The translations under genes and the position numbers were made by a program. Positions 1-17,906 of a stretch of DNA of 64,000 bases are shown here, piece after piece (position 1 is the first letter of the stretch; each line of letters starts with the position of its first letter). The stretch spans positions 18,968-82,967 of the forward strand of contig JACSRU010000095.1 in assembly GCA_014879575.1 (NCBI GenBank), read 5' to 3'. Below the pieces are notes generated by a model. It had not been told where the DNA came from, ran no database searches, and saw only the letters and a program-made list of their open reading frames with translations. The stretch is from Chthoniobacterales bacterium. GTDB taxonomy: Bacteria > Verrucomicrobiota > Verrucomicrobiia > Chthoniobacterales > Terrimicrobiaceae.

Positions 1-1
1 G

Positions 2-3000
2 TTGGAGGCATTCCTCATTGCGGCTCAGAGTTTCCAAAACTCCGACGGCCGCTCCCCATTTGCTTTTAAACTCCATCAATTCATCAGCGGGCCCGGAAAG
101 GTACTCTGCACGCTCGAAGACGACAGCAAGCGGTTCATCACGTTGGATTCGCAACGTTTCGCGCCCAACCGCCAGGAGCAAAGTGTTTTCCTCTTCAGTA
201 CCCATTTTTGCCGGGAATGCGGGCAAGAGTATCACCCAGTCTGGGAAAATCCCGAGAGCCAACCGAACTTTACACCGCGCGAAATTGACGATGTCGGGGC
301 CGAGGATCGGGAGGAAAAATCAGGGTTTCTGGCTCCCGTGCGCCCGGGTCAGGACTTTCGCGGAAACCTCTCGGAGTTCCCCGAAACGTGGATCGACACC
401 TCAAAAGAAGAACCGCAACTAAAGCCCGCCTATCGGTCGGCCAAACCCATCCCCGTGATGGTCGACCCAAATGGACGGGCCGGCGGCGGGCGGCGGTATT
501 GGTATATTCCGGGGAAATTCCGGTTTTGTCTCAACTGTAGTCAACTGCACGACGCCTACGGGCGGGACATCAACCGACTCTCCGGCTTGTCGGGCGAAGG
601 TCGTTCCTCGGCGACCACCATGCTGACGCTCTCGATGTTGCGTCAGCTTTTTGACGAGACCGCGGGCAGCGTCACGTCGAACGACCCACGCAAGCTCCTC
701 GGGTTCACCGACAATCGGCAGGACGCGGCGTTGCAAGCAGGGCACTTCAACGATTTCGTTTTTCTTTTGATCCTGCGCTCAGGACTGATTGGCGCTCTTC
801 GACAGAATTCCAATGTCCTTCAGGAAGATCGTCTCAGCGAGGCGGTTTTCGATTCGTTGGGCTTCGGTCAATCCGATCCGGGAGTTCTTGCGGAATATCT
901 TCGTGATCCCGGCCTTCTAGGTCTGGGTCTGCGGGAAGCGCAAAAAGCCGTTCGATTTGTGCTCGGCTACCGACTCATCCGTGATTTGCGAAAAGGTTGG
1001 CGATACAACAATCCCAACTTGGACCAGTTGGGCCTGTTGCGCATCAGCTACACCGGACTCGACGAGTTTGCGGCCAGCGACTCTGTGTTCAAAACCAGCG
1101 ACCTCCTTTCCAGACTTTCAGGGCCGGAACGCGCCGCCTTCGCACGGCTCATCTTCGACGAGTTGGTCAAAAACCTGTGCATCGAATCCCGCTTCCTCGA
1201 CGGCATGGAGCACGAGCGCATGCGTGGCGCCATCTACAACTACCTGACTGACCGGTGGTCCTTCGGAGAAGATGAAAAGCTACTCACGACCAAGTATCTA
1301 ATTCTCGACAAACGACCCGACAGCAAGGGGCGTCAGAGGTTGGATTTGGTTGGTGGCGGTCCGGGCTCTCGCCTCGTGCGGAATTTGAAATACGCTACGT
1401 TTTGGAAAGACTCCGCACTCTCCGACCGAATCGGCGATCTATCGCGCCAGGAACTGGTGGACTTGATCCGCACTTTCCTCAAGCTCGCGGAGATGCACGG
1501 CTACGTTCAAAGCCAGGGCCTCGACAATAACAAGCTAACCGGATGGACGCTGAAATCCGCCTCGCTGAAGTGGACCTTGACCGAAAATCTGGAAGAGCCG
1601 AGTGGCTCGTCCCGGAATGCATTCTTTCACCAACTTTACCTGACGATTGCGTCAGTCCTCACATCGCAGTCCCATCCGCTCTTCGACTTCGAGGCCCACG
1701 AACACACGGCTCAAGTTGATGCCGAAAAGAGGAAAGTTCTGGAGCAACGATTCCGCCGAAACACTCGGGATTTTGAGGAATGGGAGGGAAACCCGGACAA
1801 CAAGGGGCCAATGCCCAAACTGCCGGTTCTCTACTGCTCACCAACCATGGAACTTGGCGTGGATATTTCCGCGCTGAATACGGTGTTTCTGCGGAACATG
1901 CCGCCCACACCGGCGAACTATGCTCAGCGCAGTGGCCGCGCCGGACGATCGGGGCAGGCTGCCTTGGTGGTCACCTATTGCGCCGCGATGAGTCCGCACG
2001 ACCAATGGTTTTTCCACCACGCCAACGACATGGTGCATGGTGTGGTGAAGGCTCCCACACTCGAACTCGCCAACCGCGATTTGATCGAGAGCCACCTTCA
2101 CGCAGTCTGGCTGGCGAACGTGGAATATGAGCTGGATTCCAGCATCGCTCCGCTTCTGGATCTGGAGAAGCCGGAGAAGTCAGTCATTTCAGCGCTTCGG
2201 GAACGGTTTGAGGAACCTGCAGTTCGCGCTCGCGCAGTCGATCAGGTTCGGCAGGTTCTCGCCCAAGTTCAGGACGAATTCACCCCGGAAAACGCACCTT
2301 GGTTCACTCCAGATTTTGCCGAGTTGGTCATTGCGGGCAGCGCGGCGGCATTCGATGCGGCGTTTGACCGCTGGCGCGAACTCTACAACGGCGTTCAGCG
2401 GCAGATGGAGGCTTCCAACAAAATCATCCAAAGCCCCGCCACCAGCCAGAAGGACCGTGAGAACGCGAATCGGCGTTACCAGGACGCGAAAAACCAGTTC
2501 TCGCTCCTCCTAAAATCCGGCAGCCAGAACAACGATTTCTACACATTCCGCTATCTGGCGAGTCAGGGCTTCCTGCCCGGGTATAACTTCCCCCGACTGC
2601 CTTTGATGGCGTGGATTCCTTCGCAAGGGAAAAAGCGCAACGGTCAGGATGACAAAGGCAGCATGGTCAGCCGCCCGCGGTTTCTGGCGTTGTCCGAATT
2701 TGGCCCGCGAAGCCTCATTTACCACGAAGGCCGAATGTTCCGCGTGGATCGTGCGAAGCTCAACATCCACAGCTCCGATTCGATCTCAGCGGACTCAAAG
2801 CTCGCGACCATCACTGCCCGCGTGTGTATCCATTGCGGTTACGGTCATCTGGGAGACGACACCAACCCTGAGCCACTCTCGGACGTTTGCGAGCATTGCC
2901 GACAACCGTTGGCGGACGAAGGCCGCATCAACAGCCTCTATCGCATCGAGACGGTGGAGACAACGGTTCAGGAGCGCATCTCAGTGAACGAAGAGGAGCG

Positions 3001-4102
3001 CCAGCGCCAGGGCTTCGAACTCCAAACCACCTACCGGTTCATGCCGGGTCCAGGTGGCGCGCCGGAAGTGTTTTATTCTTCTGTTAAATACCGCGACGAG
3101 ATCGTGGCAACGCTCACGTATTCTCCCGCCGCGCGCATTTGGCGAATCAATAAAGGATGGCGGCGCCGCAAGGACAAAAAGCAGCTCGGCTTCGTGATCA
3201 ATCCGATTAGCGGGCGATGGAGTAAGCAGGACAGTCCGAATGAAGAGTCTTCCGAAGATCAGCCGGAGAAGATCGCCCAAAAGGAGCCGACTCAGCTCAT
3301 CGTTCCCTTCGTCGAGGATCATCGCAATATTCTCATTCTCACCCCGTCGAAGCCGTTGTTGGAAGGGGCGATGGCGACCCTTCAGGCCGCGCTCAAGCGA
3401 GGGATGACGCAGACTTTTCAGATCGAGGAATCCGAACTCGTCGTCGAGGCGTTGCCAGATCGGCAGAACCGCAAGTCTCTCCTGTTTTATGAGGCTGCCG
3501 AAGGCGGGGCGGGCGTTTTGAGCCGTATCGCCCGGGATGCCGATCAGATGGCCACCGTGGCGCGGACGGCGCTTCAAATCATGCATTTCAACCTGCCGCC
3601 AACAGCGTTCGAGCCCGCGGATCTCTCGTCGTTCGAGGAGCGCACGGAAGAAGGCGAGCGCATTTGCGAGGCGGGCTGCTACCAATGCCTGCTTTCCTAT
3701 TACAATCAGCCGGACCACGATTTGATCAATCGTCGCGATCTGACCGCACAAACATTTCTGGCTCAACTGGCCAACGGGGCGGTCCTCCGAAATGTCATTT
3801 CCGCAGAGGAGGCGGACACATCATCACTCCTCGGTGCCTGGTTGAGTGAAATCTCCCGTTTGGGATTGCGCCCCCCGAACTCGACCAACACGGAAATCCA
3901 GCAAGGGCGATGGACCGTGGATGCTTTGTATAAATCCAATCGGGCACTGGTCATTTTCTCCACTCCCGACCCCGAGTTGCTCACGTATGCCGAGGATCGC
4001 GGATACACGATCATCCAGTTTCCGGATGACTCGCTCCAATGGCCCGAAGTCTTCGCGGCAAATCCCGAAATCTTTGGCCCAATGCCCACCGTCACCACAT
4101 GA
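2..4102 (+). CDS. Superfamily 2 helicase (C-terminal part) fused to DUF1998-type domain, DISARM DrmA/DrmB- or MrfA-like; 5' end truncated by window
   Basis: Open from the window edge; helicase C motifs 'SPTMELGVDISALNTVFLRNMPPTPANYAQRSGRAGRSGQ'; DUF1998-like C-terminus 'GERICEAGCYQCLLSYYNQPDHDLINRRDL' and Cys clusters (CIHCGYGH...CEHC). Confidence 0.85.
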   Translation: MEAFLIAAQSFQNSDGRSPFAFKLHQFISGPGKVLCTLEDDSKRFITLDSQRFAPNRQEQSVFLFSTHFCRECGQEYHPVWENPESQPNFTPREIDDVGAEDREEKSGFLAPVRPGQDFRGNLSEFPETWIDTSKEEPQLKPAYRSAKPIPVMVDPNGRAGGGRRYWYIPGKFRFCLNCSQLHDAYGRDINRLSGLSGEGRSSATTMLTLSMLRQLFDETAGSVTSNDPRKLLGFTDNRQDAALQAGHFNDFVFLLILRSGLIGALRQNSNVLQEDRLSEAVFDSLGFGQSDPGVLAEYLRDPGLLGLGLREAQKAVRFVLGYRLIRDLRKGWRYNNPNLDQLGLLRISYTGLDEFAASDSVFKTSDLLSRLSGPERAAFARLIFDELVKNLCIESRFLDGMEHERMRGAIYNYLTDRWSFGEDEKLLTTKYLILDKRPDSKGRQRLDLVGGGPGSRLVRNLKYATFWKDSALSDRIGDLSRQELVDLIRTFLKLAEMHGYVQSQGLDNNKLTGWTLKSASLKWTLTENLEEPSGSSRNAFFHQLYLTIASVLTSQSHPLFDFEAHEHTAQVDAEKRKVLEQRFRRNTRDFEEWEGNPDNKGPMPKLPVLYCSPTMELGVDISALNTVFLRNMPPTPANYAQRSGRAGRSGQAALVVTYCAAMSPHDQWFFHHANDMVHGVVKAPTLELANRDLIESHLHAVWLANVEYELDSSIAPLLDLEKPEKSVISALRERFEEPAVRARAVDQVRQVLAQVQDEFTPENAPWFTPDFAELVIAGSAAAFDAAFDRWRELYNGVQRQMEASNKIIQSPATSQKDRENANRRYQDAKNQFSLLLKSGSQNNDFYTFRYLASQGFLPGYNFPRLPLMAWIPSQGKKRNGQDDKGSMVSRPRFLALSEFGPRSLIYHEGRMFRVDRAKLNIHSSDSISADSKLATITARVCIHCGYGHLGDDTNPEPLSDVCEHCRQPLADEGRINSLYRIETVETTVQERISVNEEERQRQGFELQTTYRFMPGPGGAPEVFYSSVKYRDEIVATLTYSPAARIWRINKGWRRRKDKKQLGFVINPISGRWSKQDSPNEESSEDQPEKIAQKEPTQLIVPFVEDHRNILILTPSKPLLEGAMATLQAALKRGMTQTFQIEESELVVEALPDRQNRKSLLFYEAAEGGAGVLSRIARDADQMATVARTALQIMHFNLPPTAFEPADLSSFEERTEEGERICEAGCYQCLLSYYNQPDHDLINRRDLTAQTFLAQLANGAVLRNVISAEEADTSSLLGAWLSEISRLGLRPPNSTNTEIQQGRWTVDALYKSNRALVIFSTPDPELLTYAEDRGYTIIQFPDDSLQWPEVFAANPEIFGPMPTVTT

Positions 4103-6903
4103 GCGCGGTCACTCTTCCATCATTTTCCCCAGGATCATTGGTGCGCGCTCGCGGTCGCGAGTGGGTTGTTCAGCCCGGCGGTAGTAGCACGGCCGTTCAC
4201 CTTCGTCCTCTGGGCGGCTCGGATTCCGACATCACCACCCTGATTCCGGAACTGGAGCCGGAGCCTCCCAACTCGGCGGTTTTCCCGGATCCCGATCCCG
4301 CCATGCGCGGCAATCACACGGCAGCACTGTTGCTACGCGACGCGCTTCAGCTCAAGCTCCGCTCGGGTGCCGGCCCATTCCGCTCGTTTGGAAATATCGC
4401 TGTCGAGCCGAGAGCGTATCAATTAGTCCCGCTGCTGATGGCGCTGCGCTTGCCGACCGTGCGCTTGCTCATCGCGGACGACGTCGGCATCGGCAAAACA
4501 ATCGAGGCCGGGCTGGTCGTCCGGGAACTCTACGACCGCGGAGAAATCACGCGCTTCGCCGTCCTGTGCCCTCCGCACTTGGTGGACCAATGGCAGGCCG
4601 AGCTTCAACGGCACTTCCATCTTCAGGCCGTGGCGCTCACCGCCTCCAGCGTAACGCGTCTGGAAAAATCTCTTCCTCCAGGCGTGTCTCTCTTCGAGCA
4701 CCATCCGTTCGTCATCGTCAGCCTCGACTACATCAAGAGCGAGCGGCATCGAGCGCACTTCCTCTCGATTGCGCCGGAATGCATTATCGTGGATGAAGCC
4801 CACACTTGCTCGACCGGCGGTCAGGGCAAGCAGCTCCGATTCGAGTTGCTCCAGCATCTCGCTGAGGACGAAGCCCGCCATCTTCTGCTCCTCACCGCCA
4901 CCCCGCATTCCGGCGACGATTCGGCGTTTCACAATCTTCTCTCGTTGCTGAGAAAAGACTTCGGCGCCCTCGCGGAAGGCAGCGAAGCCGAGCGCCGAAA
5001 ACTGCGTGAAGATCTGGCCCGCTATTTTGTGCAGCGCCGCCGCAAGGACATCGAGGAATGGCAGGACGCCAGCGTGTTCCCCAAGCGGATGACGACCGAG
5101 ATCACCTACAATCTCACCGGCGAATGGGGCGATTTTTTCGACGCGGTTCAAACCTACTGCGTCCAGCTCGCAGAGCGCACCGAGGCCAAGGGTGGAACTG
5201 CTCAGCACATGATCTGGTATGCCACGCTCGCGCTTCTGCGCTGCGTGTCGTCTTCACCCGCCGCGGCGGAGCGTGCGCTCACCACGCGGCTCACCGGCAC
5301 CGACGAAGAAATGATGGCGCTCGCCGACGACATGCGGCTCCGGGACGGTGATGGCTCGGATTTGAGTTCCGATGACGTCGAGCCAGCGGCCGGCATCGAT
5401 GAAGCCGCCTCGCTCACCGCATTGATCACCAAAGCCCGCGCACTCAGCGGCCAATCCGGCGATCCAAAACTCAAGGCACTCGTCACGCACCTTCGCAAAC
5501 TGCTGGAAGAAGGTTTCCGCCCGGTGGTTTTCTGCCGCTATATCGCGACAGCAAACTACGTCGCCGCCGAGCTCAAACAGCATTTCAAGAAAGCCAAGGT
5601 GGACGCGGTCACGGGGGAATACACACCAGAAGAACGCGAACTCCGCGTGAATGCCCTCGCGGAAAGCGACCAGCCGATTCTCGTCGCTTCCGATTGCCTT
5701 TCCGAAGGTATCAATCTCCAGCACGGCTTCACCGCCGTGGTTCACTACGACCTCGCGTGGAACCCGACCCGCCACGAACAGCGCGAAGGTCGGGTGGACC
5801 GGTTTGGCCAGAAAGAGCCTGAGGTTCGATGCACCATGCTCTACGGGCAGGACAATCCGGTGGACGGCTTTATCCTCAATGTGATCCTGCGCAAGGCGGA
5901 CGCCATCCGCCGCGAACTCGGTGTGCTCGTGCCGCTGCCGCAGGACGAGCAACGGATCAATCAGGCCGTCATCAAATCCGCCCTGCTCAAACGCCAGCGG
6001 CAATCGGCCTCAGGTCGCCAGTTGGAGTTCCAATTGGACGACGAGACCGCCGCCAGCCTCAAGCCGTTGGATACGGCGTGGGAAGACGCGATGGAAAAGG
6101 CCCGTGCCAACCGCACCGTCTTTGCACAGCGCCGTCTCCGGCCCGAGGAAGTGCTTCCCGAATGGCAGCGCCAACTCCAGCTCATCGGCGACGAGTCGTC
6201 CATCGCTCGGTTTGTCCGCAATGCCTGCTCTCGCCTCAATGCACCCTTGGAGCCGTCACGAAACGCCTGGCGCTTCAACCCCCGGCACTTGCCATCGCAA
6301 CTCAAGGAACGTCTGGATCAGGAATCCCTCGACCGGGAGTTGACGATCGACTTCCACTACCCGCCGAACCCGAACGCCCAGTTCATTCACCGCACCCATC
6401 CGTTGGTAGCGATACTTGCGGATACCCTGCTCGAGGGCGCGTTGCAGGATGCCTCTCCGCTCGCCGCGCGCTGCGCCGCCACCGTCAGCGCGGATGTCTC
6501 CACGGTCACCACACTGTTCCTGCTCCGCCTGCGCCATCAGCTGTCCTACAAAAAGCGCGAATTATCCCGCACCCTGATGGCGGAGGAAACCCTGGCCCTC
6601 GCACTGGAGGGTCGCCAAAACCCACGCTGGCTGGATGACTCACAGGTGATCCAACTCCTCGACCTCACGCCCAGCGGAAATCTTGGCGATGCCGCTGCAC
6701 GGAAGGAGATCGAGCACGCCATTACGTTTTTCCGCAGCAACACTCCGCAATTCGAAACCCTCGCGAGCCAACGCGCCGATGCGCTTCTGGCCGACCACCG
6801 CCGTGTCCGCGAAGCCGCCCGAGATCTCGGCAGTTACGAGGTGAATCCCTGCCTGCCGGTGGACCTCATCGGCGTTTACGTTCTCCTCCCCGACAGTCTG
6901 TAA
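4099..6903 (+). CDS. SNF2-family DEAD/H helicase (DISARM DrmD-like)
   Basis: Walker A 'LLIADDVGIGKTIEAGLV', 'IIVDEAHT', 'LLLTATPHSGDD', motif VI 'NPTRHEQREGRVDRFGQ'; ATG at 4099 overlaps the TGA of the upstream gene. Confidence 0.9.
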   Translation: MSAVTLPSFSPGSLVRARGREWVVQPGGSSTAVHLRPLGGSDSDITTLIPELEPEPPNSAVFPDPDPAMRGNHTAALLLRDALQLKLRSGAGPFRSFGNIAVEPRAYQLVPLLMALRLPTVRLLIADDVGIGKTIEAGLVVRELYDRGEITRFAVLCPPHLVDQWQAELQRHFHLQAVALTASSVTRLEKSLPPGVSLFEHHPFVIVSLDYIKSERHRAHFLSIAPECIIVDEAHTCSTGGQGKQLRFELLQHLAEDEARHLLLLTATPHSGDDSAFHNLLSLLRKDFGALAEGSEAERRKLREDLARYFVQRRRKDIEEWQDASVFPKRMTTEITYNLTGEWGDFFDAVQTYCVQLAERTEAKGGTAQHMIWYATLALLRCVSSSPAAAERALTTRLTGTDEEMMALADDMRLRDGDGSDLSSDDVEPAAGIDEAASLTALITKARALSGQSGDPKLKALVTHLRKLLEEGFRPVVFCRYIATANYVAAELKQHFKKAKVDAVTGEYTPEERELRVNALAESDQPILVASDCLSEGINLQHGFTAVVHYDLAWNPTRHEQREGRVDRFGQKEPEVRCTMLYGQDNPVDGFILNVILRKADAIRRELGVLVPLPQDEQRINQAVIKSALLKRQRQSASGRQLEFQLDDETAASLKPLDTAWEDAMEKARANRTVFAQRRLRPEEVLPEWQRQLQLIGDESSIARFVRNACSRLNAPLEPSRNAWRFNPRHLPSQLKERLDQESLDRELTIDFHYPPNPNAQFIHRTHPLVAILADTLLEGALQDASPLAARCAATVSADVSTVTTLFLLRLRHQLSYKKRELSRTLMAEETLALALEGRQNPRWLDDSQVIQLLDLTPSGNLGDAAARKEIEHAITFFRSNTPQFETLASQRADALLADHRRVREAARDLGSYEVNPCLPVDLIGVYVLLPDSL

Positions 6904-6909
6904 ATCTTC

Positions 6910-9900
6910 ATGTCACGTCGTCACCCAGATTCTCTGATCTTCGATACCATCCGGCTGGAGGGCGGTCTTTTTGTGCCGGCGCTGCTGGAGAAGGCCGCGC
7001 GCGGCGACCATTCGGAGCAGGCCGCGGCCGATTATCAACTGCCAAAGGGTCTGAGTCTGGCTGACGAACAAGGCCGCGCCTTTCGGATCGCGGGGGCGTT
7101 GTGGAAAAACTTCGATCCGGTTCGCGCCCGGAAGGATGTCGATGCATTGAAGGCCACCGTCGGTTTCGCTTCAGAACTCCTGCGCGACGCTCTCGATTAC
7201 TCGGATTTTACGCTCTGTCCCACGCCCGTTGAAATCCAGGGACGGCATTTCCCGATCACCGCTTTGTCCCGGGGCCGAGTTCCAGTCATCGTTGCCCCGC
7301 ACGATCTGGATCTCGACACGCCCGATGAGCGGTTCGCCGTGATCGGCTCGGGAACTCGCCGAAAATCCGCCTATCAACTTGCCCAGCAATTCCTCAACGC
7401 CAGCGCGGATTGCACGTGGGCATTAGTGACCAATGGTCGGCAAATCCGTCTCGTGCGCGATTCCGATACGCTCACGCGCCCGGCCTATCTGGAGTTTGAT
7501 CTCGAACTCATCCTCGCCAACGACCGCTACGCCGATTTTGCCGCACTCTGGCGGATCGTCCACTCCAGCCGGGCGGGAACATCCGAGACTGACGGTGAGG
7601 CCTGCGTATGGGAACGGTGGAAGCTCGAGGGCGAGGCTCAGGGCGAACGCGTGCGGGCTGGGCTGCGGATCGGCGTTCAGGACGCACTGCTGGCCCTGGG
7701 AACCGGATTTCTTGAGGCAAACGGCAACGACCAACTTCGCCGCCGCATCGAGTCGGGCGACCTGACCAAAGACTCCTATTTCCAGCAACTCCTTCGGCTC
7801 GTTTACCGCTTCCTGTTTCTTTTCACCGTTGAGGAACGGGGACTGCTCCATGCGCCTGATGACTCGGTCGAAGCTCGCGAGGCCCGTGGCATTTACGCGA
7901 AAGGCTATGCCCTGCGCCGTCTGCGGGATCGCTCGCTCCGGCGTGCGGGGTTCGACCGATTCACCGATCTCTGGGCGGGAATCAAGATCGTCTTCCGTGG
8001 ACTTGCAAGCGGCGAACCCCGGCTTGCACTCCCCGCGCTGGGCGGTCTGTTCGCGGTCACCCAATGTCCCGACCTCGACGCGGCAGCGCTCGAAAATCGC
8101 GCGCTGCTCACCGCCATGCGGCATCTCCGCTGGTCGGTGGGAACTGGGGCACTGGCCGCGGTGGATTACCGGAACATGGGACCCGAGGAATTAGGCTCCG
8201 TTTACGAGAGCCTCCTTGAGCTGATACCGACCATCGAACGGCCAGCTTGGCAATTTGGCTTCCTCGGAATCACCGACGAAGGCAGCAGCGACGGAAATGC
8301 CCGTAAGACCACTGGCAGCTACTACACGCCCGATGCTCTCGTGCAGGAGCTTCTCGCCAGTGCGCTCGATCCTGTCATTGCGGCACGCATCGCCGCCCGC
8401 CCGGAAGACCCGACCACCGCTCTGCTGGAACTCACGGTCATCGACCCCGCCTGCGGCAGCGCTCACTTCCTGCTCGGTGCCGCTCGCCGCATCGCGGAAA
8501 AGCTGGCCGAACTTCGCGCCGTGGAAGGCGCCGTGCGCCCGGAGGATTATCGCCATGCCCTCCGCGAGGTGATCGCCCACTGCGTCTATGGCGTGGACCG
8601 CAACCCCATGGCCATCGAGCTGGCCCGCACCGCGCTCTGGTTGGAAGGCTATGACCCCGGCCAACCGCTCTCCTTTCTCGATCACCACCTGGTCTGCGGT
8701 GACGCCCTGCTTGGGCTCATCGATTTCAAACAGCTTGAGGCCGGCATTCCGAACGACGCCTTCAAGCCGCTTTCCGGCGATCACGCGGAGACCTGCCGGA
8801 AACTGGCGGCGGAAAATCGCGTGGCGCTCAAGGATCTGGCCTCCCGCCTCCGGGACAAAAGCGCCCGGCTTTTCGATACCGAGGAAGTTGAGGATGTCTT
8901 CGCGGCTCTCTCAGCCCTGGAGGCTATGCCGGATGCGACGACCGCCGAGGTGGACGCGAAAAAGGCCGCCTACGACGCGTTCCGTAGTCGTGTCGGGGAG
9001 ACCACCCTGGCCCAGGCCGCCGACCTCACCGCGGCGGCGTTCCTCACTCCCAAGGAAGGGCCGGCGGACGTGGAAACCTGCCCGACGACGTTGACGCTGC
9101 TCCAGACGCTCTTCCCGCAGAAGGGTGAGGCCACCCCGGCGGACACGCTCGCGCGGGCGCACGCTCTTTGCCGCGAAGCTCGCGTTCTCCATTGGCCACT
9201 CACGTTTCCGCAGGTATTCGGGCGGGGTGGGTTCGATTGTGTGCTGGGCAATCCGCCGTGGGAACGCATCAAGCTCCAGGAGGAAGAGTTTTTCGCTTCG
9301 CGCGAACCGCTCGTTGCCAGCGCCAGGAACAAGGCCGAGCGCGGCCAGCGCATCCGCTGGCTCTCGGAGGGCAGTCTCGCCTATCACATTCACCAGATTG
9401 ACGTTCCGCCCGAAGGCGACAAGGCGGAGCGTGCGCTCTATCGGGAGTTCATCACCGCCCGGCGGCTGGCCGAGGCGATGAGCGTCTTTGCTCACGTGGA
9501 TGGCGACGAGGGAGGTCGTTTCCCGCTCACCGGAGTGGGCGACGTGAATACCTACGCGCTTTTCGCGGAGTTGTTCAAGCAGGTCACCCAACCCGCCGGA
9601 CGCGCCGGGTTTATCGTGCCAATGGGCATCGCCACCGATGACACGACAAAGGCATTCTTCGCGTCGGTGATAAGTCAGCGCCGACTCGCTCAGCTCATTG
9701 GCCTTTTCGAGATTCGCGCATGGTTCCCGGCTACGGACGATCGGAAGGCGTTTTGCCTTATCACTTTGGGACACTCGGATAAGTCCCGCTTCATTTTCGA
9801 CGTGAAGGCCATAGAGGACCTTCAGCAGGACGCTAAATGGATCGAACTCCCCCCGGAAGACCTTATTCTCATCAATCCCAACACACGCACCTGTCCCGTT

Positions 9901-11784
9901 TTCCGGGCTCGCGCCGATGCCGAGTTAACGCGTGCCATTTATCGGAGGGTTCCAGTAATCATTAAGGAAGCCCGCGACGGCAAACCGGAGAACAATCCGT
10001 GGAGCATTAAGTTTTCGACCATGTTTCACATGTCGAACGACAGCCATCTTTTCCTCAATTCGCCCGATTCCGACGCCGTGCCGCTCTACGAGGCTAAGAT
10101 GATCCACCAATTCGATCACCGCTGGGCCACATATACCCGCACTCCCGAGGGCGAACTCAACACGATCGATGTCACAAGCGTTCAGAAAGCCAATCCTGCC
10201 TTTACGGTCGTCCCACGCTATTGGGTTCCCCGCAGCGCAGTGGCCGATTCCATGCTGAGCAAGCAAGACCCGCTCTATCCGCTTCACATTGCAGCGCGGG
10301 AGAAACGTCGCGATGCCCTCGCATGGTGGTGTCGCTGCTGGCTGTGGGGGCATGAACTCCTGGCTGGACGCGAAGAAGCTGCTTCTCGCCTCCGCAAGGA
10401 GATGGACGATGCCCGTATCGTCAGCCACGACACAATGGAAATCGTCATGGCCCACGAACCCGAGCTCCAGTGGGCCAAACACGCCGCCACCGCATTCCCG
10501 CTCACCGTCGAGGAACAGAGACTCCTCTGGATTCAGATTGAAGCCGACGGAGGGCTTATCTCCAGAGATCCGCGTGTCATTGGAGCTAAAAGTAGCGGGG
10601 AACTCGCGGAAGCTTGGGAGCACGTTACAGAAGAAGTCCTCGCGAGAAGGCGAAAGAAATGGCTTACAGGTTGGCGTCGCAATGCTCGCAACACGGACGA
10701 GCGCTCATTGATTTGTGCCGCAATGCCGGCGCATGGAATTGGTGACAGTATATTTCTTTTTGTGACGCTTCAGGCAGACCACCTGGCGTCCGCATTCCTC
10801 GCGAATTGCAATTCCTTAGTTTTCGATTTTGTAATGCGGCAGAAGCTAGCCGGGAGCAATCTCAGTTTCTACTACTTAAAACAGCTTCCCGCTCTCCCCC
10901 CTGAAGCCTACGCCCCAGCTGATCTAGCCTATATTGTGCCTCGTGTTCTGGAACTGACCTACACCGCTCACGATATGCGTCCGTGGGCGGAAGATGTGGT
11001 CGCCAGTTTCCAGCGACAGTTCCCGCAGCATCCGCCCATCGTCGCCGATCCAACGCATCCCTTTCTTTTCGACGCCGAACGTCGCGCCGTAGTCCGGTCG
11101 GAACTCGACGCCTATTTTGCCAGACTCTACGGCCTCACGCGGAACGACCTCCGCTACATGCTCGATCCCGCGGATACGCATGGCGACGACTACCCGACAG
11201 AGACGTTTCGCGTTCTGAAGAAGAACGAGATCGACCAATACGGCGAATACCGCACCCGCCGCCTGGTCCTCGAAGCCTGGGACCGACTTTTTCCCGAAGA
11301 AATTCCGGTTCGCCCGCCTCGGGTTCCGTTTCAAAAGAAGGACGCCAAGCTCTACGCATCCTTTTTGGTTTATGCCAGTATCACCCGTGCTCAAGGTCGG
11401 GTTCCCCTGCGCCGGATGGTCCGCTCATTCAGCTTGCTCAAGGATCCCAAGCGTCTGGTTTCCAGCCTCGATGCAACTCGAGCGAGCGAAGCCGAGACAT
11501 GGATGGCGACTTTTAAAGAGCCGATTGGAGAAATTCGGCTTCAGGGGATTTTAGAGGAATTGCGCGGACGGGACCAGGTTCGGATTTTGAAAGACGATCT
11601 GGACGAGTTGCTTGTGGTTTTCCGGCAGGGCGCAACAATTCCCACCATCCCCGCAGAAATCCTGGAGGACGCAGAAATTTCGGACCGCGCCGCCCAAATC
11701 GAATTGTCGCAGGAGGCGCCGCAGCCTGAAGAGGAACAGGAGGAGGAAATTCTCGAATATTTTGCTAATGCCCCGATGACCTAA
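6910..11784 (+). CDS. Large Eco57I/type IIG-like N6-adenine DNA methyltransferase (DrmMI/PglX-like)
   Basis: Motif I 'VIDPACGSAHFLLGAARRI', motif IV 'VLGNPPWERI', N-terminal 'ALVTNGRQIRLVRD' typical of type I/IIG-like proteins; 6 bp after the SNF2 gene. Confidence 0.85.
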   Translation: MSRRHPDSLIFDTIRLEGGLFVPALLEKAARGDHSEQAAADYQLPKGLSLADEQGRAFRIAGALWKNFDPVRARKDVDALKATVGFASELLRDALDYSDFTLCPTPVEIQGRHFPITALSRGRVPVIVAPHDLDLDTPDERFAVIGSGTRRKSAYQLAQQFLNASADCTWALVTNGRQIRLVRDSDTLTRPAYLEFDLELILANDRYADFAALWRIVHSSRAGTSETDGEACVWERWKLEGEAQGERVRAGLRIGVQDALLALGTGFLEANGNDQLRRRIESGDLTKDSYFQQLLRLVYRFLFLFTVEERGLLHAPDDSVEAREARGIYAKGYALRRLRDRSLRRAGFDRFTDLWAGIKIVFRGLASGEPRLALPALGGLFAVTQCPDLDAAALENRALLTAMRHLRWSVGTGALAAVDYRNMGPEELGSVYESLLELIPTIERPAWQFGFLGITDEGSSDGNARKTTGSYYTPDALVQELLASALDPVIAARIAARPEDPTTALLELTVIDPACGSAHFLLGAARRIAEKLAELRAVEGAVRPEDYRHALREVIAHCVYGVDRNPMAIELARTALWLEGYDPGQPLSFLDHHLVCGDALLGLIDFKQLEAGIPNDAFKPLSGDHAETCRKLAAENRVALKDLASRLRDKSARLFDTEEVEDVFAALSALEAMPDATTAEVDAKKAAYDAFRSRVGETTLAQAADLTAAAFLTPKEGPADVETCPTTLTLLQTLFPQKGEATPADTLARAHALCREARVLHWPLTFPQVFGRGGFDCVLGNPPWERIKLQEEEFFASREPLVASARNKAERGQRIRWLSEGSLAYHIHQIDVPPEGDKAERALYREFITARRLAEAMSVFAHVDGDEGGRFPLTGVGDVNTYALFAELFKQVTQPAGRAGFIVPMGIATDDTTKAFFASVISQRRLAQLIGLFEIRAWFPATDDRKAFCLITLGHSDKSRFIFDVKAIEDLQQDAKWIELPPEDLILINPNTRTCPVFRARADAELTRAIYRRVPVIIKEARDGKPENNPWSIKFSTMFHMSNDSHLFLNSPDSDAVPLYEAKMIHQFDHRWATYTRTPEGELNTIDVTSVQKANPAFTVVPRYWVPRSAVADSMLSKQDPLYPLHIAAREKRRDALAWWCRCWLWGHELLAGREEAASRLRKEMDDARIVSHDTMEIVMAHEPELQWAKHAATAFPLTVEEQRLLWIQIEADGGLISRDPRVIGAKSSGELAEAWEHVTEEVLARRRKKWLTGWRRNARNTDERSLICAAMPAHGIGDSIFLFVTLQADHLASAFLANCNSLVFDFVMRQKLAGSNLSFYYLKQLPALPPEAYAPADLAYIVPRVLELTYTAHDMRPWAEDVVASFQRQFPQHPPIVADPTHPFLFDAERRAVVRSELDAYFARLYGLTRNDLRYMLDPADTHGDDYPTETFRVLKKNEIDQYGEYRTRRLVLEAWDRLFPEEIPVRPPRVPFQKKDAKLYASFLVYASITRAQGRVPLRRMVRSFSLLKDPKRLVSSLDATRASEAETWMATFKEPIGEIRLQGILEELRGRDQVRILKDDLDELLVVFRQGATIPTIPAEILEDAEISDRAAQIELSQEAPQPEEEQEEEILEYFANAPMT

Positions 11785-11798
11785 ACCCCATTCACCCC

Positions 11799-13856
11799 AT
11801 GAAACCCGTGCAACAAGAGCTTCGATTCGAGTGGATGACCAAGCCTTTCAAGGTGGATCCCGCCAAGCGGACACCAGGATTTTGGATTCAGGATCTGCTA
11901 TTGCTTGAATCGATCACCGACCCGGGCGCCCATAAAATTCGGCATTTTCGATTGCATCGAGGACTCAACATTCTCTGGGCAAAACCCTTCGATCCAGATG
12001 CGGCGGACGCGGGAAACGACGAGTCGTTCTCAGGACATGCGGCAGGGAAGACGCTTTTTTGCCGGATGCTGCGCTACCTCCTCGGTGAACGGCATCTTGG
12101 AAACGAAATCGTTCAGGAAAAAATCGCGTCCAACTTTCCCAACGGTTGGGTTGTCGGGACGATCTTTATCGGCGAAACACCGTGGCTCGTGGGTCGTCCT
12201 TTCGAGGGAAAGCGCGGCCAATTCTCAGTCAAAGGGATGACGGTGGATGAGTTCCTCCAGAACTCAGAGCCGGAGAAAGAAGACTTCGATAAGTTTGAGG
12301 CCGCGCTCAATGAGGAGGTCATGCACCCGCTGAAAGTGCGGGCATTTCCAGACCGCCCGGGAGAGTTTATCTTCCAGCATTGGTTGCCGTGGCTGTCCCG
12401 CGACCAGGAGGCGCGTTTCGGAAGCGCGTCCCAATGGCGCGAGGCGTCCAGCGGGGCTGAACCGCTTCTCACGGATTCTGAAGAACGCTCATTTCTCGTT
12501 CGCGCGATTCTGAATCTTATCGATCCTGAAGAAAAAAAGGAACTGGCCCACAATGCCAATCTGGTGAGAGAGCGCGACAAGCTTCGCGGGCGTATTCCAA
12601 TCCTGGAAGATCGCGCGGGGACCGATCTTGCAAAACTTCGCACGGGGCTGAAATCATCCGGCCTCTCAGACGAATTCGCGGAGTCGCTTTCGCTGGAGGA
12701 CGACCTGCTCGTTCCGACGATCAAAGCGAAGCTGGATGAAAAGCTGCGTGGCGTGCGGGCGTTGATCGAAGACATCCCCAGCGCGCGGGATGTGGATAAG
12801 CTACAAGTCAGTCTGACCCGCGCGACCGTAACCAGAGCGGGATTGGAACGCGACCTGACGGAGCTGGAGAAAGGGCTGGAAAAGCTGAACGCGGATTGGG
12901 CGAATTTTTCCAAACAAAAGCAGACCGAGGAGATGGGTAGCCATTTCGAGAAGCTTCCGATTCCTCCGGGGTATTGCGGCGCTCCGATTCCATTGGCCGG
13001 AGCACAGCAGCCACCGTGTCGCCTCTGGCAGGAATGGTCGAATCTCCCCGTAGACGCAAAGACCGGAGGCCCTTCCCTCGAGGCTTACAATCAAGAGATG
13101 GGGCGACGAGTGGCGCAGCAGCGATCTCAAATCGAGGCAAAAAAGCAGGAAATCAGTATGGCGAGTTCGTCCGAAACGACGGCCCAGCAGGCGTTAGGCG
13201 ACGCGAACGAGAAGCGCCACAATCTTTTTGCCTATCTCAAAACGCAGGAAACAACCTTTCAAGGGCTCATCGGGCTCGCAGAAAGCGCCCAGAGCGCCCA
13301 CAAGGAGTTAAAAACGAGCCAAACCCAGCTCGAGAAAAAGGACGACGCAATCGACGAGTCCTACAAGAAGCAACAGGAGATTCGGGACAAGCAAAAGGGG
13401 GAGTTCTCCATATTTTCGGGCTACTTCGAGGGAATCTGCCAGCACGTCTTGGGACGCGTGATTCATGGCTCGGTGCTCACCCGCAAAAGGCTCCTCCAAT
13501 TGGACCTCAGCGACCGGGGACCTCTCACCAGCGCAGCAATCGAGACCATCAAGGTTCTGGCCTTGGATCTAGCGGCCGTCTGGTATTCGGCTGAGGGAAA
13601 GGGATTTCATCCGGGATTTTTGATTCACGATGGCCCTCGGGAAGCAGACATGGACGCATGGATATACCGCCGCTTTTTCACTTTCGTCACCAAACTCGAA
13701 GCCGCCTACGCCACCAGCCACGAGCCCGCGTTCCAATACATTATCACCACCACAGAGCCACCTCCCGAAGACATGCAACAGGGTAGATGGCTGCTCGAAC
13801 CAACCTTGAGTGCGCAGAAGGCGGACGAGAGACTGCTGAAAACGGACTTGAAATGA
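11799..13856 (+). CDS. Rad50/SMC-like coiled-coil ATPase
   Basis: Walker A 'GHAAGKT', long central coiled coil, Walker B-like 'GFLIHDGPREADMD'; 15 bp after the methylase. Confidence 0.7.
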   Translation: MKPVQQELRFEWMTKPFKVDPAKRTPGFWIQDLLLLESITDPGAHKIRHFRLHRGLNILWAKPFDPDAADAGNDESFSGHAAGKTLFCRMLRYLLGERHLGNEIVQEKIASNFPNGWVVGTIFIGETPWLVGRPFEGKRGQFSVKGMTVDEFLQNSEPEKEDFDKFEAALNEEVMHPLKVRAFPDRPGEFIFQHWLPWLSRDQEARFGSASQWREASSGAEPLLTDSEERSFLVRAILNLIDPEEKKELAHNANLVRERDKLRGRIPILEDRAGTDLAKLRTGLKSSGLSDEFAESLSLEDDLLVPTIKAKLDEKLRGVRALIEDIPSARDVDKLQVSLTRATVTRAGLERDLTELEKGLEKLNADWANFSKQKQTEEMGSHFEKLPIPPGYCGAPIPLAGAQQPPCRLWQEWSNLPVDAKTGGPSLEAYNQEMGRRVAQQRSQIEAKKQEISMASSSETTAQQALGDANEKRHNLFAYLKTQETTFQGLIGLAESAQSAHKELKTSQTQLEKKDDAIDESYKKQQEIRDKQKGEFSIFSGYFEGICQHVLGRVIHGSVLTRKRLLQLDLSDRGPLTSAAIETIKVLALDLAAVWYSAEGKGFHPGFLIHDGPREADMDAWIYRRFFTFVTKLEAAYATSHEPAFQYIITTTEPPPEDMQQGRWLLEPTLSAQKADERLLKTDLK

Positions 13857-13940
13857 AACCAACGCACGTCCCGCCTCACTATCACAACAGGAGTTCAGTT
13901 GGTGTTTGATTGAGACTATAAAAATTCCGCACCACCTAAA

Positions 13941-14621
13941 ATGGCACCAAAGAAGAAAACCAACCCAAAAGCGACGGAGCCGCCGCGCCTCAAGATTCTC
14001 GTTTCGTCTGCCGTGGTGGATTGGGACGAATTGCTGGAGAGCATCTATGCCCTTCTGGAAACCTACGGCTACGAGGTGATCATGTCCCACAAGGGCACTC
14101 TACCGGTGGAGCCCTCCGTGTCCGCCATGGACTCCTGCCTCAAGGCTGTTGAGGATTGTGATTTGTTTCTGGGCGTCATCCTTCCGCGATATGGTTCGGG
14201 AAAAGAGGACAAGGATGGTCTTTCAATCACGCACCGAGAGGCAATCCGAGCGATTGAACTCAACAAGCCGAGATGGTTTCTCGTGCATGAGCATGTTTCC
14301 GTCGCCCGTGAGCTGCTGAGGCCGTATCGGGACGAAAAAATCAAAGACCGTTTCACCCTCAAAAAGGGAATCGAGTTTGGGAGCACCCGCATTCTCTCGA
14401 ATCTCCGCGTGTTGGACCTTTTCGAGCTGGCAATGCGACACGACATCCCCGAGGTCAAGGATCGCAAGGGCAACTGGGTGCAACCTTACACGTCGGAGGA
14501 CGACGCCCGGCTTTTTGTGTCAGCCCAGTTCCGCCGCTACCGGGAGATGTCCGAGAAGTATCTACCGAAACTGAAGGACACGGCTGCGATTCGCGGACGG
14601 ATCAAAGGAGGCAAATCATGA
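13941..14621 (+). CDS. DUF4062 domain protein
   Basis: 'LKILVSSAVVDWDELLESIYALLETYGYEVIMS...SAMDSCLKAVEDCDLFLGVILPRYGS...SITHREAIRAIELNKPRWFLVHE' resembles DUF4062. Confidence 0.75.
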   Translation: MAPKKKTNPKATEPPRLKILVSSAVVDWDELLESIYALLETYGYEVIMSHKGTLPVEPSVSAMDSCLKAVEDCDLFLGVILPRYGSGKEDKDGLSITHREAIRAIELNKPRWFLVHEHVSVARELLRPYRDEKIKDRFTLKKGIEFGSTRILSNLRVLDLFELAMRHDIPEVKDRKGNWVQPYTSEDDARLFVSAQFRRYREMSEKYLPKLKDTAAIRGRIKGGKS

Positions 14622-15988
14622 CCAAGGCGATCGAAAAGCTCCTCGAACAACCAGAATCCGAAACACTGGAGTTCAAGACGGGGAAGGTAAAACCAGCACA
14701 ACTTGGAAAAGTCGTTTGCGGTATGCTCAATCAACACGGTGGCGTGATTTTGTGGGGCGTGGATGACGAGGGAAGTCCGACCGGCATTACCGATGCCGAG
14801 GCTCGAGCCGTCGAGTTGAATAATTTCCTCATGCCCCGGATGAACCCGCGCCCGCTTTTCTCGGCCACGGCCCACCGGATTCGAGGGAAGGAAATTGTCG
14901 CCATCGACATCCCCGCCGGGACGGAAAAACCTTACGCATTCGAGCGGGAGTTTTGGGTCCGTCTCGGCTCGTCCACGATGCGCGCCGCCCCCGAACAAAG
15001 CTCCCGGATGGTGGAACGCAGCGCAGTCGCGCTCGATCGCTGGGAACGAGAACCGCATCCCGGGTTCGATCTCACGGACTGCGACAGTGCCGAATTGAAG
15101 GAGGCACGGGATGAAATCATCAAGGCCGGACGATTCGGCATTGATGTTCCTGCCGCCGATGTGGAACTCCTCGCCAAGTTGTATCTGCTAAAGAGCGGCC
15201 AGCTCACCAATGCCGCAGTCGTCCTGTTCGCGGCCAATCCTTTGGCATGGGCGCCGAATCTCTCGGTGAGAATCACCAGTCACATCCAAGGGGGGGAGGC
15301 GACTCACGACCGGATCCTCGAGGGTCCCGCCATCCGTATCCTGCGGGAGGCGGTGGTCGTGATCCAGCAACGGACCGGCCGCTCAATTGCCTTTCCCAAG
15401 GGACAGCTCGAACGCGAAGAACGCTCCGCCTATCCGCTTTACTCGCTTCGGGAAGGGTTGGTAAACGCCATGGTTCACCGGGACTACGAGACATCCGGTA
15501 TCGGCGTGCTGGTCAGGATCTACGAAGATCGCCTGGAAATCGCCAACCCCGGCCAATTACCAGACGGCTGGACTGGTCAGGATCTGGGCCGGAAGGTCGA
15601 ATCTCATCCCCGGAATCCCGACATCGCCCGGGTCTTTTATCTCCGAAAACTCATGGATCAACTTGGGCTGGGAACCCAGCGCATTGTGGACGAGTGCGTG
15701 TCCGGCGGAGCGAAATCTCCGAAATGGAAGCAAGAGAAGCACACTGTGACGCTCACCCTGTTCCCGGCACCCGAGTTGTCCGAACAGACGGCGCTGAATC
15801 CCAGACAGATGGAGTTCCTTAATTCCTTAAAGCTGGGAGCCCCTTTCAAGGCCGCTGACTACGAGAAGGCCACCTCGGTGAGCGCCCGCCAGGCTCGTCG
15901 TGATTTGGCCGAGTTGGAACGGATCGGCGCGCTCAAACGCACTGGCGCTGGACCGTCCACCGCCTACCAGCTCACCAGGAAACTCTGA
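14618..15988 (+). CDS. AlbA_2 / RecG-like (Schlafen-type) ATP-binding protein with C-terminal winged helix
   Basis: 'ESETLEFKTGKV...LGKVVCGMLNQHGGVILWGVDDEG', 'YPLYSLREGLVNAMVHRDYETSG', C-terminal 'ARQARRDLAELERIGALKRTG'; overlaps the DUF4062 gene by 4 nt. Confidence 0.85.
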   Translation: MTKAIEKLLEQPESETLEFKTGKVKPAQLGKVVCGMLNQHGGVILWGVDDEGSPTGITDAEARAVELNNFLMPRMNPRPLFSATAHRIRGKEIVAIDIPAGTEKPYAFEREFWVRLGSSTMRAAPEQSSRMVERSAVALDRWEREPHPGFDLTDCDSAELKEARDEIIKAGRFGIDVPAADVELLAKLYLLKSGQLTNAAVVLFAANPLAWAPNLSVRITSHIQGGEATHDRILEGPAIRILREAVVVIQQRTGRSIAFPKGQLEREERSAYPLYSLREGLVNAMVHRDYETSGIGVLVRIYEDRLEIANPGQLPDGWTGQDLGRKVESHPRNPDIARVFYLRKLMDQLGLGTQRIVDECVSGGAKSPKWKQEKHTVTLTLFPAPELSEQTALNPRQMEFLNSLKLGAPFKAADYEKATSVSARQARRDLAELERIGALKRTGAGPSTAYQLTRKL

Positions 15989-16009
15989 TCCGGCCAAAAT
16001 CCGGCCATA
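15988..16009 (+). repeat. First cluster of ATCCGGCCA direct repeats
   Basis: ATCCGGCCAAA-ATCCGGCCATA followed by degenerate TCTGGACAAG. Confidence 0.8.
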
Positions 16010-16119
16010 TCTGGACAAGCCCATGCCACCACTTAATTTTGAGATGCTCCGAGCCGAAAACGAAGGCGGCATCGCTCTTTTCATCAGGCATTTACATGAC
16101 TTTCAGAGAAGAGGCGTAA

Positions 16120-16187: not shown

Positions 16188-17906
16188 ATGGCCAAGACCG
16201 AAGCGACCGTCGAAGAACTCGTCAGCATGATCGAGCGGAGCAAGCTCCGCCTGCCGGAAATGCAGCGTCGATACGTCTGGCGCTCTACTCGGGTTCGTGA
16301 CCTTCTCGACTCCCTTTATCGCGGTTATCCATCCGGGGCGATTCTCGTTTGGGAAACCGACGAAGGGGTGCCCTTGCAAGACATGGCGATCGCGCAGGAA
16401 GGCGGGAACATCGGTTCCTCCCAACTGCTGTTGGATGGTCAGCAGCGGCTCACCTCGCTATCTGCCGTGATCCGCGGCATCCCGGTGGACGTTCGCGGCA
16501 GAAAACGGCCAATCGAGCTGCTTTTCAATTTGGACCATCCAGAGAAGCTCGCCTTCGTCACCGAGGTCGATGAAGACGGCGACGAGGAGGAAACCGAGGA
16601 AGATGACGAAGACGGAATCGATGAGGAGAACCCGGATTCGTCGGAAGATGAGCTCCAGAAACGGTTCAACAAAATGACCTTCGTGGTGAGCACCCGGAAA
16701 TTGGAGCAGCTTCCAACCTGGGTAAAGGTCACGGACGTTTTCAAATCCGACAGCGACACTCCATTTCTCAAGCGAGCGGGCATCACTGGATTCGACGATC
16801 CCCGTTACGAAAAATACTCTCAACGGTTGGCCCGCCTTCGTGGCATCAAGCGGTATTCCTACCGGATCGACGTGCTGGAGCGGACTCTCGATTACGATGA
16901 GGTCACCGAGATTTTCGTGCGGGTTAACTCACTCGGTGCAAAATTGCGTAGCTCGGATCTCGCTCTGGCCCAGATCACCGCCAAGTGGAGAAATTCCCTC
17001 GCCGAATTTCAATCCTATCAGAAACAATGCGCCGGGCAGGGATTCGACCTCGATCTGGGTATTCATCTCAAAAATCTCGTGGCATTCGCGACGGGACAAT
17101 CCCGCTTTCTCACCGTGGGGAGATTGTCACTGGAGGCACTCCAAACCGCCTGGAAAGAATGCCGGGAGGGTATGGACTTCGCGCTAAATTTTCTGCGAAG
17201 CAACACCGGCATCGACAGCCCCGCGCTGCTCTCGTCCCCTTTTCTCCTCGTGACACTCGCTCTGTTCGGCCATCGAAGAAAATACGATGTCTCGCCTCAG
17301 GAGGAAGATCGCCTGAAATTCTGGTGTCTGCTCGCCAATGCCAAAGGCCGATATTCCCGGGGCTCGAGCGAGACGATTCTGGATCAGGATCTCGCCATTC
17401 TTCGAAACGGCGGCGCGGAAGATTTGATCGATCGACTTCGTCAGCAAGTGGGACGGCTGGATATTGCTCCGGAAGAGTTGGAGGGACGAAATCAACGGAG
17501 CGCGCTGTTCAAAACAATGTTCCTGGCATTTCGCGCTGCGGGTGCCAAAGACTGGAAGTCGCAGCTTTCCATCGCACTCTCTCATTCCGGAAGCCAGCAC
17601 CGCCTCCAGTTTCATCATATTTTTCCGAAGGCTGTTCTGAAGGGCAGCTACACGGCAAGGGAAGCGGATGACATCGCAAACCTCGCCTTCATCGGTGGGA
17701 AAACCAACCGGGTGATCAGCGACAAGGCGCCGGCAATCTACTTTCCAAAAATCCTGGAAAAAACAGGACTGGAGGCGTTCTCGTCCCAATGCATCCCCAC
17801 CGAGGAAACCCTGCTCACGTCGGACGCCTATAAAAAGTTTCTCAGCGAACGCCGCAAACGGATCGCTGACTGCTTGAATCACTTTCTTGGCGTCACACCG
17901 ACATGA
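16188..17906 (+). CDS. DUF262/DUF1524 (GmrSD-like) protein
   Basis: 'RLPEMQRRYVWRSTRVRDLLDSLYRGYPSGAILVWET', 'LLLDGQQRLTSLSAVI', C-terminal 'RLQFHHIFPKAVL...IANLAFIGGKTNRVISDKAP' (DUF1524 HNH-like). Confidence 0.9.
   Translation: MAKTEATVEELVSMIERSKLRLPEMQRRYVWRSTRVRDLLDSLYRGYPSGAILVWETDEGVPLQDMAIAQEGGNIGSSQLLLDGQQRLTSLSAVIRGIPVDVRGRKRPIELLFNLDHPEKLAFVTEVDEDGDEEETEEDDEDGIDEENPDSSEDELQKRFNKMTFVVSTRKLEQLPTWVKVTDVFKSDSDTPFLKRAGITGFDDPRYEKYSQRLARLRGIKRYSYRIDVLERTLDYDEVTEIFVRVNSLGAKLRSSDLALAQITAKWRNSLAEFQSYQKQCAGQGFDLDLGIHLKNLVAFATGQSRFLTVGRLSLEALQTAWKECREGMDFALNFLRSNTGIDSPALLSSPFLLVTLALFGHRRKYDVSPQEEDRLKFWCLLANAKGRYSRGSSETILDQDLAILRNGGAEDLIDRLRQQVGRLDIAPEELEGRNQRSALFKTMFLAFRAAGAKDWKSQLSIALSHSGSQHRLQFHHIFPKAVLKGSYTAREADDIANLAFIGGKTNRVISDKAPAIYFPKILEKTGLEAFSSQCIPTEETLLTSDAYKKFLSERRKRIADCLNHFLGVTPT

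What the first reader, a model, noticed from the sequence alone, without database searches (positions are those of the whole stretch)
2..15988. Candidate non-canonical multigene defence system: helicase-DUF1998 + SNF2 + type IIG-like methylase + Rad50-like ATPase + DUF4062 + AlbA_2
Six co-directional genes with overlapping or near-zero spacing (ATGA overlaps at 4099 and 14618, gaps of 6 and 15 bp, one gap of 84 bp). The helicase-DUF1998, DrmD-like SNF2 and N6-methylase members point to DISARM or helicase-methylase-ATPase type systems. However, no PLD protein (DrmC) is present in the window, helicase and DUF1998 appear fused, and a Rad50-like ATPase plus a DUF4062/AlbA_2 pair are added. This is the best candidate here for a variant or undescribed anti-phage system. 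The family assignments are by eye and the first gene is truncated.
Basis: partly seen in the sequence, partly recalled or inferred. Interest (0 to 1): 0.85.

Follow-up and report, generated by a model that had tools for sequence, protein, structure and literature searches.

The report
ARMADA operon with plug-in SMC ATPase
This is a bacterial anti-phage gene cluster of the recently described ARMADA type I kind, and it carries an extra SMC/Rad50-like ATPase that, wherever it occurs, comes with a matching tail on the neighbouring DNA-modification or restriction protein, which suggests a portable sensing module that several unrelated defence systems have picked up.

Summary
The six-gene operon is real. 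Its truncated first gene is complete upstream of the window (1,760-1,777 aa), and the cluster continues to 18667 with a DUF262 and an HNH gene. Genes 1-3 (YprA/DUF1998 helicase, RapA-like SNF2 helicase, adenine methyltransferase) match ARMADA type I (preprint, 2025) in order, domains and tree position. They are not DISARM, Hma or Druantia.

New here: gene 4 is an SMC/Rad50-like ATPase closest to Lamassu LmuB. In 62 complete ARMADA-I loci it follows the methyltransferase in 19. All 19 of those methyltransferases, and none of the other 43, carry a ~170-residue C-terminal winged-helix tail (13 of 13 independent switches). The same ATPase-tail pair occurs on DISARM methyltransferase and on type I, III and ISP restriction proteins. 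A tail search of 390 genomes found 14 tails, every one beside the ATPase.

DUF4062 and AlbA_2 are not conserved partners; they sit in a hypervariable cargo slot before the HNH gene.

The YprA C-terminal Vsr nuclease motif is lost in this subclade, so HNH is the likeliest nuclease. Verdict: new variant of a known kind, with an apparently undescribed portable LmuB-like module. No function was tested.

The parts
1..4102 (+). Gene 1: YprA-family helicase with fused DUF1998/MZB (1,760-1,777 aa; starts ~1.2 kb upstream of the window at C22:17736 or 17787). The C-terminal Vsr-like domain has lost its catalytic motif.
4099..6903 (+). Gene 2: RapA/SNF2-like helicase (BrxHII/DrmD/DpdE-like), Walker A GIGKT, DEAH
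6910..11784 (+). Gene 3: PglX/DrmMI-like N6-adenine methyltransferase (DPACGS, NPPW motifs), 1,624 aa
11275..11781 (+). C-terminal tail of gene 3 (residues 1456-1624): winged-helix domain found only where the gene-4 ATPase follows
11799..13856 (+). Gene 4: SMC/Rad50-like ATPase, LmuB-like (Walker A GHAAGKT, Walker B FLIHDGPREAD without the catalytic Glu; near-invariant C393/C407 pair at the coiled-coil apex)
13941..14621 (+). Gene 5: DUF4062 protein, variable-slot cargo not seen in other ARMADA-I loci
14618..15988 (+). Gene 6: AlbA_2 (Schlafen)/HATPase_c_4 protein, variable-slot cargo; homologues in 5 other ARMADA-I loci
16188..17906 (+). Gene 7: DUF262 (GmrSD_N) protein with DGQQR; often directly before HNH in related operons
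17903..18667 (+). Gene 8: HNH_2 endonuclease, usual last gene of the operon and likeliest nuclease effector

Best explanation
The operon is a variant of the ARMADA type I anti-phage system. Its core (YprA helicase, RapA-like helicase, PglX-like methyltransferase) marks host DNA and engages unmarked invading DNA (inferred from the families). An optional two-part module is added: an LmuB-like SMC/Rad50-type ATPase, and a winged-helix tail fused to the C-terminus of the protein encoded just upstream, here the methyltransferase. Most likely the tail is the docking site. It recruits the ATPase to the DNA-recognition complex, where the ATPase clamps or checks DNA (ends or replication intermediates, as its Lamassu and Rad50 relatives do) and licenses a nuclease. 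Because the helicase's own Vsr-type nuclease motif is lost, the nuclease is probably the HNH protein at the end of the operon. DUF4062, AlbA_2 and DUF262 sit in a variable cargo slot and are accessory effectors or sensors. Shown: gene content, order, conservation, tail-ATPase coupling, loss of the Vsr motif. Inferred: physical docking, DNA sensing, HNH as effector, anti-phage function of this locus.
For: Core identity: gene order and domains match the ARMADA-I description in PMC12458937. The YprA tree places gene 1 among ARMADA-I-type loci, apart from E. coli ARMADA II (L135, L136) and Druantia III (L137, L138). Coupling: tail in 19/19 ATPase+ and 0/43 ATPase- loci, Fisher 2e-16, 13/13 independent pairs, p=2.4e-4. 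By raw length, only two of the 43 ATPase- methyltransferases have a tail over 100 aa. The clean tail profile, trained on ARMADA methyltransferases only, hits the C-termini of the genes upstream of the ATPase in DISARM (1.4e-14), type III Res (4.9e-10, 4.7e-7, 3.4e-6) and type I HsdS (3.9e-9). Reciprocal test: 14 tails in 390 genomes, all beside an ATPase that a separate search had found. ATPase tree: ATPases of other system types interleave with ARMADA ones, at least 3 switches forced. ATPase relatives: 26 of 31 members match LmuB models; top PDB folds are YydD and Lamassu LmuB. Tail: model pLDDT 89.5; the highest-TM hits in the list are LmuC chains (TM 0.35, not significant). Nuclease: Vsr motif absent in window, HNH in 25/33 Vsr-degenerate vs 5/19 Vsr-intact loci.
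Against: The ATPase is absent from about 70% of ARMADA-I loci, so it is dispensable for the core. The 80 loci were ranked by similarity to a tail-bearing methyltransferase, so 31% may be too high. The tail-LmuC fold match is below significance. The Vsr-HNH link rests on a single evolutionary transition (1 change on the tree), and HNH presence is not linked to the ATPase (13/19 vs 22/43). ARMADA I itself has not been tested experimentally; the 2025 work tested type II. No interaction or activity was measured.
Confidence: 0.62

Rival explanations
1. Two neighbouring systems: a plain three-gene ARMADA I operon followed by an unrelated ATPase-DUF4062-AlbA_2 defence system that happens to be co-directional.
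For: The ATPase is missing in 43 of 62 ARMADA-I loci. DUF4062 and AlbA_2 vary freely. ATPase relatives also accompany other systems.
Against: The ATPase start lies within about 30 bp of the methyltransferase end, often overlapping, and always comes with the methyltransferase tail, so the ATPase is tied to the core. In 390 genomes no tail was found away from the ATPase. For DUF4062 and AlbA_2 this rival may well be right.
Confidence: 0.2
2. A DISARM class 1 variant in which DrmA and DrmB are fused and DrmC is lost.
For: Gene 2 and gene 3 score with DrmD and DrmMI models. One real DISARM locus (L032) carries the same ATPase.
Against: Gene 1 scores with DruE (1.5e-59) far above DrmA (2.1e-9) and groups with ARMADA-I loci, with DrmA as a very distant outgroup. 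DUF1998 is fused and there is no PLD protein.
Confidence: 0.03
3. A Druantia system, as the best PADLOC match of gene 1 (DruE1) would suggest.
For: DruE1 is the best PADLOC model for gene 1.
Against: No DruH or DruA-D gene nearby; gene 1 is separate from the Druantia III helicases in the tree. PADLOC 2023 has no ARMADA model. [quoted passage not shown]
Confidence: 0.03
4. Tail and ATPase travel together because they were acquired in one recombination event at the methyltransferase 3' end, without touching each other functionally.
For: Tail and ATPase gene are contiguous, so any transfer moves both.
Against: The same pairing occurs on different carrier proteins (methyltransferase, HsdS, Res, ISP), and tails without the ATPase were not found, which neutral hitchhiking does not explain.
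Confidence: 0.12

Closest known systems
ARMADA type I (Bell et al. 2025 preprint, PMC12458937)
   Same: YprA helicase with fused DUF1998, then BrxHII/RapA-like helicase, then PglX-like methyltransferase, in that order; gene 1 falls among ARMADA-I-type helicases.
   Different: C-terminal Vsr nuclease lacks the catalytic motif that the paper predicts to be active; an LmuB-like ATPase with a methyltransferase tail, a variable slot and an HNH gene follow. The paper's main text mentions no SMC-like ATPase, DUF4062, Schlafen, Lamassu or ARMADA HNH gene (supplements not read).
ARMADA type II (ArmABCD)
   Same: Shares homologues of genes 1-3.
   Different: Order is SNF2-methyltransferase-YprA, then a RelE-GajB-like helicase ArmD (order seen in L135 and L136); the window has no ArmD.
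DISARM class 1
   Same: SNF2 (DrmD-like) and DrmMI-like methyltransferase; one DISARM locus (L032) has the same ATPase and tail.
   Different: DrmA/DrmB split and a PLD nuclease DrmC are DISARM features; here the helicase is fused and there is no PLD.
Lamassu (LmuA-LmuB-LmuC)
   Same: Gene 4 is LmuB-like by profile and fold; both lack the canonical Walker B glutamate; the tail model has LmuC among its better structural matches.
   Different: No LmuA effector and no separate LmuC gene; the LmuC-like part would be the tail fused to the methyltransferase.
Type I, III and ISP restriction-modification systems
   Same: Some members carry the same ATPase directly downstream, and the matching tail on HsdS, Res or the ISP protein.
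   Different: They lack the YprA helicase core.

Membership tests
ARMADA type I | YprA-family helicase with fused DUF1998/MZB | tested here: met
   Helicase_C and MZB in gene 1; full-length ORF 1,760-1,777 aa
ARMADA type I | Gene order YprA, then BrxHII/RapA-like, then PglX-like methyltransferase | tested here: met
ARMADA type I | Helicase lies in the ARMADA-I clade, apart from ARMADA II and Druantia | tested here: met
   Tree of 71 helicases (quick method, and the paper's own reference sequence was not in hand)
ARMADA type I | C-terminal Vsr-type nuclease predicted active (typical in the paper, not stated as defining) | tested here: not met
   The D-F-x-Y...[IV]DG motif, present in 28 helicases of the set, reads VDALY...FSTPD in the window
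ARMADA type I | BrxA-like insert after RecA1 | not tested
   Would need a structure model of gene 1
ARMADA type I | Anti-phage activity | not testable with these tools
   No experiment; the preprint tested type II only
DISARM class 1 | Separate DrmA helicase and DrmB DUF1998 protein | tested here: not met
   Fused in gene 1
DISARM class 1 | PLD nuclease DrmC | tested here: not met
   No PLD protein among the operon genes scanned
Druantia | DruH (type III) or DruA-D (type I) beside DruE | tested here: not met
   Operon genes are of other families
Lamassu | LmuB SMC-like ATPase | tested here: met
   LmuB models in 26 of 31 family members; PDB fold matches
Lamassu | LmuA effector and LmuC as separate genes next to LmuB | tested here: not met
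   No LmuA/LmuC match in the operon; tail-LmuC fold similarity is weak
Hma | HmaA, HmaB and HmaC all present | tested here: not met
   HmaA matches gene 2, below DpdE, DrmD and BrxHI; no HmaB or HmaC match shown

The most novel reading that the evidence does not exclude
A previously undescribed portable two-part module, an LmuB-like SMC ATPase plus an LmuC/KITE-like winged-helix docking tail, has been grafted onto the DNA-recognition, methylation or restriction subunit of at least five kinds of defence system (ARMADA I, DISARM, type I, type III, type ISP), turning methylation-based recognition into SMC-licensed attack.
Probability: 0.5. Interest if true: 0.8.

Novelty: new variant of a known kind. 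Interest (0 to 1): 0.62.

Why it matters
If the coupling is physical, it links SMC/Rad50-type DNA sensors (Lamassu) with methylation-based systems (restriction-modification, DISARM, ARMADA), and defines a docking domain that predicts which defence systems use such a sensor. It makes testable how methyltransferase-based systems without a classical nuclease attack phage DNA, and it gives annotation tools a rule to separate this variant. The five-gene form on rhizobial conjugative plasmids is a compact natural version to clone.

Tried and rejected
DISARM class 1, Hma, Druantia and Dpd were tested against profiles, gene content and a tree, and rejected. DUF4062 and AlbA_2 as core partners: rejected by the survey. 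HNH tied to the ATPase: rejected (13/19 vs 22/43). My first ATPase/tail count missed three ATPases whose long-ORF starts overlap the methyltransferase; corrected. My first Vsr motif pattern was too narrow; corrected. The first tail profile included the DISARM methyltransferase L032; rebuilt without it. No phage record matched the ATPase. An actinobacterial sample of 298 genomes had none, but lacked a positive control. tRNA search near the integrase: none. The viral-contig scan gave no answer. Literature searches for this ATPase with restriction-modification found nothing relevant, in open-licence papers only.

Full report
OBSERVATION. The window is G000:C22:18968-82967. Six + strand ORFs with the stated overlaps and short gaps are present. 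Gene 1 is complete in the contig: L002:9737/9788-15070, 1,777 or 1,760 aa, with its own N-terminal DEAD motor. The co-directional run continues after a 199-bp gap with no + strand terminator-like site, into a DUF262 gene (16188-17906) and an HNH gene (17903-18667) that overlap by ATGA. The genome lies in a phylum whose sampled members include Verrucomicrobia and Lentisphaerae contigs (inferred from matching contig lengths).

CORE IDENTITY. Gene 1: Helicase_C and MZB (Pfam), best PADLOC model DruE1 (1.5e-59), DrmA only 2.1e-9. Gene 2: DpdE 4.5e-201 and DrmD 1.7e-87. Gene 3: DrmMI 5.7e-68, Eco57I/N6_Mtase. A 2025 preprint (PMC12458937) defines ARMADA type I as a YprA helicase followed by a BrxHII-like helicase and a PglX-like methyltransferase. 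That is this order. A tree of 71 YprA proteins puts gene 1 beside an Opitutaceae homologue among ARMADA-I-type loci, apart from E. coli ARMADA II (L135, L136), Druantia III (L137, L138), and a distant DrmA outgroup (quick method, long outgroup branches, so deep joins are unsure).

SURVEY. A scan for the methyltransferase in one genome per species gave 80 loci. Among the 62 with at least 2.5 kb downstream, 19 have the gene-4 ATPase directly after the methyltransferase. Five-gene versions (YprA, SNF2, methyltransferase, SMC-like ATPase, HNH) lie on conjugative plasmids of Mesorhizobium and Agrobacterium. An ATPase search of 390 genomes of the phylum found 16 with a match. Their neighbourhoods are ARMADA I, one DISARM class 1 (L032), type III restriction-modification (L031, L034, L037), type I (L026), type ISP (L025) and one MmeI-like (L030).

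THE TAIL. Methyltransferases followed by the ATPase are longer: they carry 100-220 extra C-terminal residues, whereas most others end within 60 residues of the shared core. A tail profile is found in 19/19 ATPase+ and 0/43 ATPase- loci (Fisher 2e-16). On the YprA tree 13 independent pairs differ in the ATPase and the tail follows in all 13 (p=2.4e-4). The profile was trained on ATPase+ methyltransferases, so the profile counts alone are partly circular. Three checks are not. Raw tail length separates the groups, with two exceptions (L067, L102). The profile, rebuilt without DISARM, hits the C-termini of DISARM methyltransferase, three type III Res proteins and one HsdS, each the gene just upstream of the ATPase; apart from seeds, known ATPase+ loci and a 0.03-level hit to L030, nothing else in the ORF set is convincing. 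A reciprocal search of 390 genomes found 14 tails, all next to an ATPase from the earlier, separate ATPase search, including one not in the alignment (G256). In HsdS and ISP the tail lies beyond the known Pfam domains. The window tail has no Pfam match. Its model (pLDDT 89.5, pTM 0.82) is helical with a winged helix. PDB matches are weak: MarR-type winged helices by E-value, and Lamassu LmuC chains (9ny5_C, 9uxh_D) with the highest TM-scores in the list (0.35), MukE lower. I treat LmuC/KITE likeness as a lead.

THE ATPASE. 685 aa, Walker A GHAAGKT, Walker B FLIHDGPREAD with G or S where canonical ABC ATPases have Glu, and a nearly invariant cysteine pair (C393, C407) at the apex of the coiled coil in the model, zinc-hook-like. 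26 of 31 family members match LmuB models. Foldseek top hits are YydD (9a6c) and LmuB structures. A review reports that LmuB also has an altered Walker B glutamate, often a zinc hook, and a partner LmuC (PMC10586767). The ATPase tree interleaves systems: the type III ATPases with ARMADA L035/L089 (100/100), DISARM L032 with ARMADA L033 (100/98); at least three switches are forced.

NUCLEASES AND CARGO. The motif D-F-x-Y...[IV]DG of the YprA C-terminal Vsr domain is intact in 28 helicases but lost once, in a single clade that includes the window. HNH genes occur in 25/33 Vsr-degenerate and 5/19 Vsr-intact loci (p=0.001, but a single transition, so only suggestive). The methyltransferase N-terminal region reads VAPHxLxLD where an ExK motif would be expected in type IIG enzymes (inference by eye). 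HNH is therefore the likeliest nuclease. Between methyltransferase/ATPase and HNH lies a hypervariable slot: DUF4062+AlbA_2+DUF262 here, reverse transcriptase UG5-nitrilase in L027, SIR2 in L110, DUF6236 in L029. DUF4062 is unique to the window; AlbA_2 recurs in five other loci (L067, L094, L097, L110, L111).

MECHANISM. Shown: content, order, coupling, motif loss. Inferred: the tail docks the ATPase onto the methyltransferase complex; the ATPase senses DNA ends or intermediates as relatives do; HNH cuts; slot genes add effectors or sensors. Supplementary tables of the ARMADA preprint could not be read, so the ATPase association may be listed there.

Noticed in passing
C22:2978-4054 (L003) and L002:7872-8801: A phage-type integrase and a ParA-like gene lie upstream of the operon, suggesting that it sits in an integrated mobile element; no tRNA was found nearby and the borders were not mapped.
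   Followed up: partly
15990-16012 and 16122-16152: Short repeated CCGGCCA-containing motifs in the gap between genes 6 and 7; possibly regulatory or part of gene-end sequence.
   Followed up: no
L027:12114-15182: A UG5-nitrilase reverse transcriptase (DRT-type) sits in the ARMADA-I variable slot before the HNH gene.
   Followed up: partly
L110:14329-17070: A SIR2-domain protein and AlbA_2 proteins occupy the ARMADA-I slot in Treponema berlinense.
   Followed up: partly
L032:2652-17914: A DISARM class 1 locus (DrmD, methyltransferase, ATPase, DrmA, DrmB) carries the same LmuB-like ATPase and methyltransferase tail.
   Followed up: yes
L125 and L126: Five-gene YprA-SNF2-methyltransferase-ATPase-HNH operons on conjugative rhizobial plasmids.
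   Followed up: yes
L067, L102, L114 methyltransferases: Three methyltransferases without the ATPase have long, apparently unrelated C-terminal tails; perhaps other docking domains.
   Followed up: no
YprA C-termini, L039-L118: One monophyletic ARMADA-I subclade has lost the Vsr nuclease motif, contrary to the general statement in the ARMADA preprint.
   Followed up: yes
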